From positions 1-64,000 of the forward strand of contig CAMVNO010000002.1 of NCBI GenBank assembly GCA_947168855.1: a stretch of DNA of 64,000 nucleotides. The letters are read 5' to 3'. Source of the DNA: an uncultured Clostridia bacterium. Lineage in GTDB: Bacteria; Bacillota; Clostridia; Christensenellales; CAG-138. Positions 121-34,474 of the stretch are shown here, in pieces. A program made the position numbers and the translations under genes. Positions within the stretch are counted from its first letter, which is position 1. Each line of letters starts with the position of its first letter. The notes below the pieces were generated by a model. The model searched no databases. It was not told the origin of the DNA and saw nothing but the letters and a program-made list of their open reading frames with translations.

Positions 121-207
121 AAATGAATTGTCCATGCGGACATGAATAGCGGCAGAGCCGCATGAATTGTGCTTCGCACATGAATTGACGCCTGCGGCGT
201 CATGAAA
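121..207 (+). repeat. Truncated hairpin-array repeat (CATGAATTG family), copy A
   Basis: Four short stems (GTCC..GGAC, GCGGC..GCCGC, GTGC..GCAC, GACGCC..GGCGTC) are separated by CATGAATTG-type linkers. This matches only the left half of the full elements at 18179, 30426 and 34190; the central hairpin and the right half are missing. It ends about 16 bases before the tdh ribosome binding site, so it probably lies in or next to the tdh leader. Confidence 0.75.
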
Positions 208-238
208 GATGTATTGTATTCCAAGGAGGAATAAACGA

Positions 239-18178: not shown

Positions 18179-18453
18179 AAAAGGGGATGTTCAGATATAT
18201 CTGAACATCCCCTATGAATTGCAGCACGGCTGCATGAATTGCCTGTCGGCATGAATCGGCTTCGCCGTGAATTGACAACTTTGTTGTCATTGATGAAGGT
18301 TTTCCGTTCGGAAAACCAACCTTCATGACGGCTTTGCCGTCAATTCATGCGCCGGAAGGCGCAATTCATGTCCGAAGGACGATTCACGGAGCAAAGCGAG
18401 AATTCAAAAGAGGGTGTTCAGAAACAATAAGCTGTTTCTGAACACCCTCTTTT
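18179..18453 (-). repeat. Hairpin-array repeat, full copy B (inverted)
   Basis: This fills the gap between the convergent SGNH and htpG genes. Bracketing stems lie at 18179-18213 (GGGGATGTTCAG/CTGAACATCCCC) and 18408-18453 (AGAGGGTGTTCAGAAACA and its complement). Between them are about ten mini-stems joined by CATGAATTG or CAATTCATG linkers around the central GGTTTTCCG/CGGAAAACC hairpin (about 18298-18315). Read on the minus strand, its order of stems matches the copies at 30426 and 34190. Confidence 0.85.
18408..18453 (-). terminator. Terminator-like stem downstream of htpG
   Basis: An 18-bp stem AGAGGGTGTTCAGAAACA/TGTTTCTGAACACCCTCT flanked by AAAA and TTTT. It is usable in both directions and is the first structure after the htpG stop. 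Confidence 0.8.
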
Positions 18454-30410: not shown

Positions 30411-30425
30411 GGTCTGATCAAAACA

Positions 30426-30470
30426 AAGGGGCTGTCCCAAAACGCCATGTCGTTTTTGGACAGCCCCTTT
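30426..30470 (+). terminator. Terminator after the aquaporin gene / left bracket of repeat C
   Basis: AAAGGGGCTGTCC and GGACAGCCCCTTT form the outer stem and AAAACG/CGTTTT the inner one. It serves as the aquaporin terminator and also as the left bracketing stem of the hairpin array. Confidence 0.85.
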
Positions 30471-30674
30471 ATGAATTCTCGCTTCGCTCCGTGAATCGTC
30501 CGAAGGACATGAATTGCGCCGAAACTGCGCATGAATCGACGGCAAAGCCGTCATGAAGGTTGGTTTTCCGAACGGAAAACCTTCATAAATGACATCATGG
30601 ATGTCAATTCATGCCGAAGGCAATTCATGCACAAAGTGCAATTCATGGCGCAGCCGATTCATGCCGAAGGCAAC

Positions 30675-30702
30675 AAACCGGGGCTTTTACAGCCCCGGTT
30701 TT
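30675..30702 (-). terminator. Terminator of the ETEAPA-repeat lipoprotein gene
   Basis: AACCGGGGCT-TTTAC-AGCCCCGGTT; on the minus strand it is followed by TGTTG. It lies 10 bases after the stop at 30712. Confidence 0.75.
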
Positions 30703-34189: not shown

Positions 34190-34235
34190 AAAAGAGGGTG
34201 TTAAGAAACAACTTTTTGTTTCTTAACACCCTTTT
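34190..34235. terminator. Left bracketing stem of repeat D
   Basis: AAGAGGGTGTTAAGAAACAA pairs with TTTCTTAACACCCTTTT. It lies upstream of the M15 gene promoter, so it ends no gene on the plus strand and belongs to the repeat. Confidence 0.75.
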
Positions 34236-34431
34236 CATGAATTCTCGCTTCGCTCCGTGAATTGTCCTTTGGACATGAATTGCGCCTGAGCGGCGCATGA
34301 ATTGACGGCACAGCCGTCATGAAGGTCGGTTTTCCGAACGGAAAACCTTCCTAAATGGCAATGAAATTGCCAATTCATGCCGATAGGCAATTCATGGCAC
34401 AGCCGATTCATGCAGCTGTGCTGCAATTCAT

Positions 34432-34474
34432 AGGGGATGTTAAGAAATGCAGAACACTTTCTTAACATCCCCTT
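34432..34474 (-). terminator. Terminator of pepF / right bracket of repeat D
   Basis: AGGGGATGTTAAGAAA/TTTCTTAACATCCCCT with a short loop, 12 bases after the pepF stop. The minus-strand tail reads TATGAATTG, without a good U-run, so termination strength is uncertain. Confidence 0.6.

What the first reader, a model, noticed from the sequence alone, without database searches (positions are those of the whole stretch)
30426..30702. Hairpin-array repeat family whose stems change but stay paired between copies
Copies at 18179-18453 (inverted), 30426-30702 and 34190-34474 share order and linkers. At one equivalent stem right of the centre the three copies read GACATC/GATGTC, GGCAAT/ATTGCC and GACAAC/GTTGTC: both arms changed together. 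The linkers (CATGAATTG left of centre, CAATTCATG right) and the central GGTTTTCCG/CGGAAAACC stem stay constant. Compensatory change suggests selection on folding as RNA or cruciform DNA, rather than a plain sequence repeat. I know of no described family with this linker-switch design, but I cannot search.
Basis: seen in the sequence. Interest (0 to 1): 0.8.

Follow-up and report, generated by a model that had tools for sequence, protein, structure and literature searches.

The report
Mobile hairpin arrays replacing gene terminators
A family of short repeated DNA elements, built from many small hairpins joined by a fixed five-letter spacer, has spread in gut bacteria by settling where genes end; the hairpins change sequence while staying paired, and one strand seems to be the one that matters.

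Summary
The three window copies belong to a repeat family with 18 centres of the window's type A in this 2.42-Mb genome (some copies truncated) and 8 copies of a type B whose cores are 100% identical. On 22 aligned copies the stems covary far beyond shuffles (14 of 51 pairs; 54 cells against 14.8). But the two "linkers" are one motif read on two strands: the unit is a tag TGAAT plus a hairpin TG..CA, in inverted arrays. Part of the paired change is exchange of whole hairpin modules, seen directly in A/B hybrid copies. The elements move or are copied: in related genomes the same places hold a plain terminator-like hairpin, replaced to the base at the clearest site. Complete copies carry terminator-like hairpins at both ends. 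Loops are strongly polar: on the ATTCA strand they read c(GNA)g or c(GNNA)g (121 to 8 distinct hairpins), recalled as very stable single-stranded DNA loops. The tag pair recurs in 28 of 391 genomes of the class, with other stems, and other tags follow the same loop rule. It works like a REP/BIME-type non-autonomous repeat, but no cognate transposase is shown. RNA function is neither shown nor excluded.

The parts
30425..30470 (.). Left cap of copy 2: terminator-like hairpin GGGGCTGTCC..GGACAGCCCC with A-tract and T-tract
30479..30553 (+). Left half of copy 2: CGCTTCGC hairpin, then hairpins TCC/GGA, CGC../..GCG, ACGGC/GCCGT joined by TGAAT
   Evidence: sequence; alignment and counts
30562..30581 (.). 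Central stem GGTTTTCCG-AA-CGGAAAACC
   Evidence: 16 places in own genome at up to 3 mismatches; two more
30590..30672 (+). Right half of copy 2: hairpins GACATC/GATGTC, GCC/GGC, CAC/GTG, GGC/GCC, GCC/GGC joined by ATTCA (same module, opposite orientation)
30675..30702 (.). Right cap of copy 2: hairpin AAACCGGGGC..GCCCCGGTTT
34190..34474 (+). Copy 3: caps at 34190-34235 and 34429-34474, central stem 34328-34347
18179..18453 (-). Copy 1, inverted: caps at about 18182-18213 and 18408-18453, central stem 18298-18317
141..211 (+). Uncapped TGAAT array just upstream of the gene that starts between 209 and about 241
   Evidence: L192

Best explanation
These are non-autonomous, mobile palindromic elements of the REP/BIME sort, built from a module: tag TGAAT + hairpin TG..CA whose loop is closed by C-G. 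Modules stand in two inverted half-arrays around a central stem, capped at both ends by terminator-like hairpins. SHOWN by comparison: the elements are absent from corresponding sites in related species, where short terminator-like hairpins stand instead, at the clearest site with identical flanks up to the base of that hairpin; type B spread very recently; modules and caps are exchanged between elements and lost as exact units; stems vary while pairing is kept; loops have a fixed polarity. INFERRED: insertion is tolerated because the element brings terminators of its own; what keeps the stems paired reads hairpin shape plus tag in one single strand (the ATTCA strand, c(GNA)g and c(GNNA)g loops), most likely as single-stranded DNA during replication or transposition; a Y1/HUH transposase of the RAYT type acting in trans is a candidate mover, unproven.
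For: Copy number: 16 type-A centres and 2 more; 8 type-B copies. Recent spread: 8 own B cores identical over 184 nt; 10 copies in congener G021, 5 of them identical, 90.8% mean identity between the two genomes. Empty sites (hairpins judged by eye): at 18179, 7 of 7 relatives printed lack the array and hold a short GC-rich hairpin (5 with both neighbouring genes, 2 with another left neighbour); at 30426, 6 of 6; at B1, G012 matches the own flanks to the base around a 20-nt hairpin in place of about 270 nt; at B2, G010 and G003 hold GGTCTGTTGAAA..TTTCAACAGACC in the place of the element. Context: 12 of 17 assignable A copies between convergent genes, 5 tandem, 0 divergent against 9 of 45 gene pairs in the window (p = 9e-6). 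Covariation. Unit and tag: 473 of 750 TGAAT..TGAAT spacers have a perfect stem of 4 or more, 0 of 20 with the reversed tag. Polarity: TN(N)C 121 to GN(N)A 8 on the TGAAT strand among 290 distinct perfect hairpins, p = 5e-27; other tags CGATAT 16:0, GTGATAT 8:0, GTGAAGT 6:1. Module exchange and loss: hybrids L215 and L418-L422; hairpin 2 cleanly missing in L005, L006, L015. A RAYT-like gene in the own genome (NF047646, 71.9 bits; PDB TnpArep 4er8, E = 4e-4).
Against: The RAYT gene scores below the curated cut-offs (71.9 against 80; Pfam 21.1 against 23), is flanked by a different, GTAG-like repeat, and only 1 of 16 RAYT loci in the genus has a TGAAT array within the fetched flanks; co-occurrence in the genus is weak (9 both, 3 array only, 3 RAYT only, 8 neither; one-sided p = 0.03, not corrected for kinship). 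No target duplication or fixed target word was seen by eye. Site 34190 has no clean empty site in four of six relatives. Of the 8 B copies only 2 are convergent, 5 are tandem. Some copies lack a cap (L014, L015, L030). Single-mismatch stems point two ways: inner pairs favour wobble on the ATTCA strand (26:12, p = 0.03), the outermost pair favours wobble on the TGAAT strand (33:11, p = 0.001). The third base of GNNA loops is a purine in 55 of 97, so that test singles out neither RNA (GNRA) nor DNA. 99 of 171 three-base loops and 45 of 102 four-base loops fall in neither class. Modules are related by descent, so counts are not independent.
Confidence: 0.6

Rival explanations
1. RNA element: the arrays are transcribed and selected as RNA (3'-end protection, bidirectional termination, or 5'-leader structure), and the covariation is ordinary RNA covariation.
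For: Strong fold (z -9.2), covariation, position at gene 3' ends; uncapped arrays stand just upstream of ribosome-binding sites with the TGAAT strand as sense strand in seven own-genome cases (L192, L225-L230). PMC3733652 argues this way for REPs (first part of its discussion read).
Against: Capped arrays lie between two terminator-like hairpins and so may be little transcribed (inference); loop polarity puts the GN(N)A loops on the strand that is antisense in the seven 5'-leader cases; no Rfam match.
Confidence: 0.25
2. Neutral upkeep: pairing is restored by template switching within hairpins and by gene conversion between copies; no selection on folding.
For: Module and cap exchange among A and B copies; loops TTT/AAA and TTC/GAA at one homologous hairpin look like inversions; cells changed on both sides (54) exceed cells changed on one side (19, summed); stem GC follows locus GC (Spearman 0.53 over 84 loci, several from one genome).
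Against: Free inversion would erase loop polarity, which is 121:8 and recurs with other tags; the tag stays fixed in 22 genera of the class while stems differ.
Confidence: 0.25
3. Ordinary MITE moved by a DDE transposase through terminal inverted repeats GGGGCTGTTC/GGGGATGTTA.
For: The outer ends of type B share GGGG(C/A)TGTT(C/A)A in inverted orientation.
Against: Each end is itself a full hairpin; caps are swapped (L002, L215, L418-L422); no target duplication seen in the flanks. A transposase with these ends was not searched for.
Confidence: 0.12

Closest known systems
REP / BIME elements with GTAG or CGTC tags (Di Nocera et al. 2013, PMC3733652, passages and first part of discussion; Nunvar et al. 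2010, PMC2817692, abstract and outline)
   Same: Short intergenic palindromes with an unpaired tag at one end, families with alternative complementary stem residues, frequent between convergent and tandem genes, species-specific, thought to be non-autonomous
   Different: Tag TGAAT, tandem arrays of many different hairpins with one 5-nt spacer, fixed loop polarity, terminator-like caps standing where relatives have a terminator-like hairpin, Clostridia; no proven cognate transposase
MITEs and composite repeats such as BOX, RUP, SPRITE, ERIC (review PMC10969869, passages only)
   Same: Non-autonomous intergenic repeats with stable secondary structure; SPRITE is terminator-like; BOX is modular (the last recalled)
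   Different: No target duplication seen; ends are hairpins; many different stems under one tag
Mitochondrial double-hairpin elements and GC clusters (PMC4478555 and others, search listing only)
   Same: Mobile hairpin elements in which structure outlasts sequence (recalled)
   Different: Organelle DNA; no tag-and-array design known to me
Ultrastable DNA minihairpins d(GCGAAGC), d(cGNAg), d(cGNNAg) (recalled; GCGAAGC also in the search listing)
   Same: Most classifiable loops on the ATTCA strand have these forms; an outer hairpin carries GCGAAGC in 19 of 22 aligned copies
   Different: Known as oligonucleotide properties, not as a genomic repeat family

Membership tests
REP/BIME (RAYT-linked palindromes) | Unpaired tetranucleotide tag GTAG or CGTC at one end of the palindrome | tested here: not met
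   Tag is TGAAT; in the linker tally ATTCA/TGAAT leads with 170 of 407, though most loci were fetched by that tag
REP/BIME (RAYT-linked palindromes) | Many intergenic palindromic copies with complementary stem variants | tested here: met
   96 tag-pair matches in own genome, 0 for the reversed control; 290 distinct hairpins, 99 stems over the loci scanned
REP/BIME (RAYT-linked palindromes) | rayt gene flanked by the cognate repeats | tested here: not met
   Own RAYT is flanked by a GTAG-like repeat; 1 of 16 RAYT loci has a TGAAT array nearby, on one side
MITE | Terminal inverted repeats | tested here: inconclusive
   GGGG(C/A)TGTT ends, but each is a complete hairpin and exchangeable
MITE | Target-site duplication | tested here: not met
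   None seen by eye in flanks of 8 B copies or at sites B1 and B2
MITE | Parent insertion sequence with the same ends | not tested
Structured RNA family | Match to a described family | tested here: not met
   0 Rfam matches in the window at gathering scores
Structured RNA family | Covariation beyond controls | tested here: met
   (four of five measures)
Structured RNA family | Transcription | not testable with these tools
   no expression data
   2 caps of the window copies recognised (18213-18182, 34232-34195), the others read by eye; the region's total was not above shuffles by much (24 against 18.6, sd 4.5)

The most novel reading that the evidence does not exclude
A class-wide superfamily of tagged hairpin arrays in Clostridia (tags TGAAT, CGATAT, GTGATAT, GTGAAGT) that a cellular or mobile factor reads by shape in one single strand of DNA: fixed tag, fixed loop grammar c(GN(N)A)g, free stem sequence. 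It moves by taking the place of terminators, carrying its own.
Probability: 0.35. Interest if true: 0.82.

Novelty: new variant of a known kind. Interest (0 to 1): 0.62.

Why it matters
It is a natural case in which shape is kept and sequence is free in a DNA repeat, so it can separate selection on folding from templated repair and module exchange. It also shows mobile elements standing in for transcription terminators at gene ends, and gives a clear search rule (tag + c(GN(N)A)g hairpin) for finding the protein that reads it. It warns that covariation in repeat families need not mean RNA.

Tried and rejected
Rfam: no match. Viral contigs: 30 stretches with the tag pair; L337 and L344 hold several matches, not followed up. 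RAYT as mover: gene found, but its own repeats are GTAG-like and the array link is weak, so it stays a candidate. Simple longest-ORF context was unreliable in this GC-rich genome and was replaced by codon scoring, which is itself a heuristic. Array-to-start-codon test: 33 of 191 arrays have a start with ribosome-binding site downstream on the TGAAT side and 17 on the other; several on both sides are false hits inside elements, so only the seven inspected own-genome cases (of 12 uncapped own-genome arrays looked at) are used. Two more B sites gave no syntenic empty site: L217 has a multi-copy gene on its left, and the L214 flanks lie on different contigs in relatives. A covariance model was not built. 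Literature: nine searches, judged from their listings plus the papers named, showed no description of this family in the held library, which lacks most subscription papers.

Rows dropped before counts: alignment A1 leaves out L014 and L030 (truncated), L018, L021 and L024 (relative G006; the first two hold a nested insertion) and seven of the eight identical B cores; it includes three near-identical rows from G021 (L019, L022, L025). Empty-site rows not used: L285, L302, L312, L313 (a gene or contig end in the gap, or flank not orthologous); L305 (G006, B1) was printed but its right side maps elsewhere. Viral loci were left out and of the linker tallies, not.

Full report
WHAT IS THERE. The three copies and the stems are as described. 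Reading both strands shows one module: the tag TGAAT followed by a hairpin that starts TG and ends CA. Left of the centre the module is on the + strand; right of it the same module is on the other strand and reads ATTCA. The window also holds an uncapped array at 141-211.

HOW MANY. In the own genome (2.42 Mb, 16 contigs) the type-A centre has 16 places at up to 3 mismatches and two further ones; L014, L015 and L030 are truncated copies. Tag pairs match 96 times and the reversed control 0 times. A second type, B, has a different centre and 8 copies. Internally deleted capped copies exist: L222 (A-like, centre lost) and C9:48449 (B-like, both caps but only part of the modules). One cap-like hairpin stands alone (C5:10494; no tag within 150 nt). 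Twelve uncapped arrays were also looked at.

COVARIATION. On 22 aligned copies with the structure built, 96.7% of 1064 cells pair; 14 of 51 pairs change on both sides, 54 cells, against 8.1 pairs and 14.8 cells in shuffles (0 of 500 as high), and 1-4 cells when partners are slid. Further standard pair types did not clearly exceed shuffles (26 against 23.5, 66 of 500 as high). Single-pair cases include C-G to U-A in helix 2, A-U to G-C and C-G to U-A in helix 6, and A-U to G-C in helix 10. But part of the signal is module traffic: the GGC and GCC hairpins stand in opposite order in one group of copies, and hairpin 2 (L005, L006, L015) or hairpins 5 and 6 (L008, L011) are cleanly missing in others.

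RECENT SPREAD AND EXCHANGE. The 8 own B cores are identical over 184 nt while their flanks differ; 10 copies in congener G021 are 95.7-100% alike, and the two genomes differ by about 9%. In G021 four copies (L419-L422) join an A-type left cap to a B core and four (L418-L421) have an A-type right end; in the own genome L215 is a B copy with an A-type right cap. Whole modules and caps are thus exchanged.

EMPTY SITES (hairpins judged by eye). At 18179 all 7 relatives printed lack the array and carry a short GC-rich hairpin, for example AAAAAAAGCCCCGGAACGATCCGGGGCTTTTTT in G004 and G013; in G009 and G015 the left neighbour is another gene. At 30426, 6 of 6 lack it and carry a hairpin. At 34190 all 6 lack the array, but four have 218-1118 bases of other sequence there. 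At B1, G012 reads cagaacataaaa-CCCGGTGCAAAGGCATCGGG-atcaacgattcag where the own genome has the same flanks around the element; G013, G010 and G004 also have a hairpin there but lack about 120 further bases on the right, G003 has 255 bases of other sequence, and G021 has what looks like a decayed array. At B2, G010 and G003 hold GGTCTGTTGAAA..TTTCAACAGACC in place of the element, with own and G010 flanks agreeing to within a few bases, and none of the 10 relatives printed has an array in the gap. So the element takes the place of a terminator-like hairpin. That it arrived, rather than was lost elsewhere, is inferred from the identity of the B copies.

CONTEXT. By codon-scored gene of 17 assignable A copies are convergent, 5 tandem and 0 divergent; in the window 9 of 45 gene pairs are convergent, two of them the pairs that hold copies 1 and 2 (p = 9e-6). 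B copies: 2 convergent, 5 tandem, 1 unassigned. Seven own-genome uncapped arrays (L192, L225-L230) stand before a ribosome-binding site with the tag on the sense strand.

POLARITY. Among 290 distinct perfect hairpins from the loci then held, viral ones left out, loops on the tag strand are TNC 65, TNNC 56, GNA 7, GNNA 1, others 161; the closing pair is C-G in 273 of 280 TN(N)C cases. Read on the other strand these are c(GNA)g and c(GNNA)g. I recall these as very stable DNA tri- and tetraloops; no paper on that was read here. An outer hairpin with GCGAAGC on the other strand is present in 19 of 22 aligned copies. Wobble evidence is mixed (see evidence against). In a tally of all neighbouring hairpins 3-7 nt apart, ATTCA/TGAAT is the linker in 170 of 407 and in 0 of 213 over five block shuffles; since most loci were fetched by that tag its lead is expected, but the tally also brought up other tags, and these keep the loop rule: CGATAT 16:0, GTGATAT 8:0, GTGAAGT 6:1 (small numbers, no shuffled control for these).

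DISTRIBUTION. Among 81 relatives 12 have the pattern, all in the own genus. Among 391 genomes of the class, 28 genomes (own included) in 22 of 223 genera have it, with other stems, AT-rich in some; one control hit was seen. Stem GC follows locus GC (Spearman 0.53, 84 loci, not independent). Arrays in three other class members printed keep the inverted design with other centres (L407-L409).

MECHANISM. The steps shown are spread, standing in for terminator-like hairpins, module exchange and loss, kept pairing, and polarity. The mover is not shown. One RAYT-like gene exists but sits among GTAG-like repeats; co-occurrence is weak, and G019, counted as array-free, does have BLAST-detectable relatives of the element. 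Template switching between terminators through their A and T tracts would also explain replacement without duplication.

COMPARISON. REP families have tags, complementary stem variants, and convergent and tandem placement (PMC3733652: passages and the first part of its discussion), and are tied to RAYTs (PMC2817692: abstract and outline). This family works like them but fails the tag and rayt-flanking tests, so it is not filed as a member. A survey of stem-loop families in 40 genomes names two Clostridium species in the passages seen (PMC2267715).

Noticed in passing
L232:1285-1827 (own genome C4): A RAYT-like gene whose open frame itself holds an in-frame GTAG-type palindrome (peptide GRAMPVPT), with copies of a related repeat on both sides in the same orientation (right copy GTAG, left copy GCAG).
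   Followed up: partly
L226, L078, L081, L088, L108, L134, L258: A second kind of array with tag CGATAT and the same loop grammar, directly joined to a TGAAT array in L226.
   Followed up: partly
L018 and L021 (G006): TGAAT arrays interrupted by another palindromic repeat (..GGGCGACGCGCGATGG..), a nested insertion.
   Followed up: no
L192, L225-L230: Uncapped TGAAT arrays whose last tag (CATGAA) leads into a ribosome-binding site, tag on the sense strand in these seven.
   Followed up: partly
L279, L282: In relatives G021 and G012 the terminator-like hairpin at the 18179 site contains CGGAAAACC, like an arm of the element's central stem; the centre may derive from a terminator.
   Followed up: no
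L248 (own genome C9:48449) and L249 (C5:10494): A type-B derivative that has kept both caps but lost its centre and several modules, and a cap-like hairpin standing alone.
   Followed up: partly
L337 and L344 (viral contigs): Two contigs called viral hold five tag-pair matches each; possibly host DNA misbinned.
   Followed up: no
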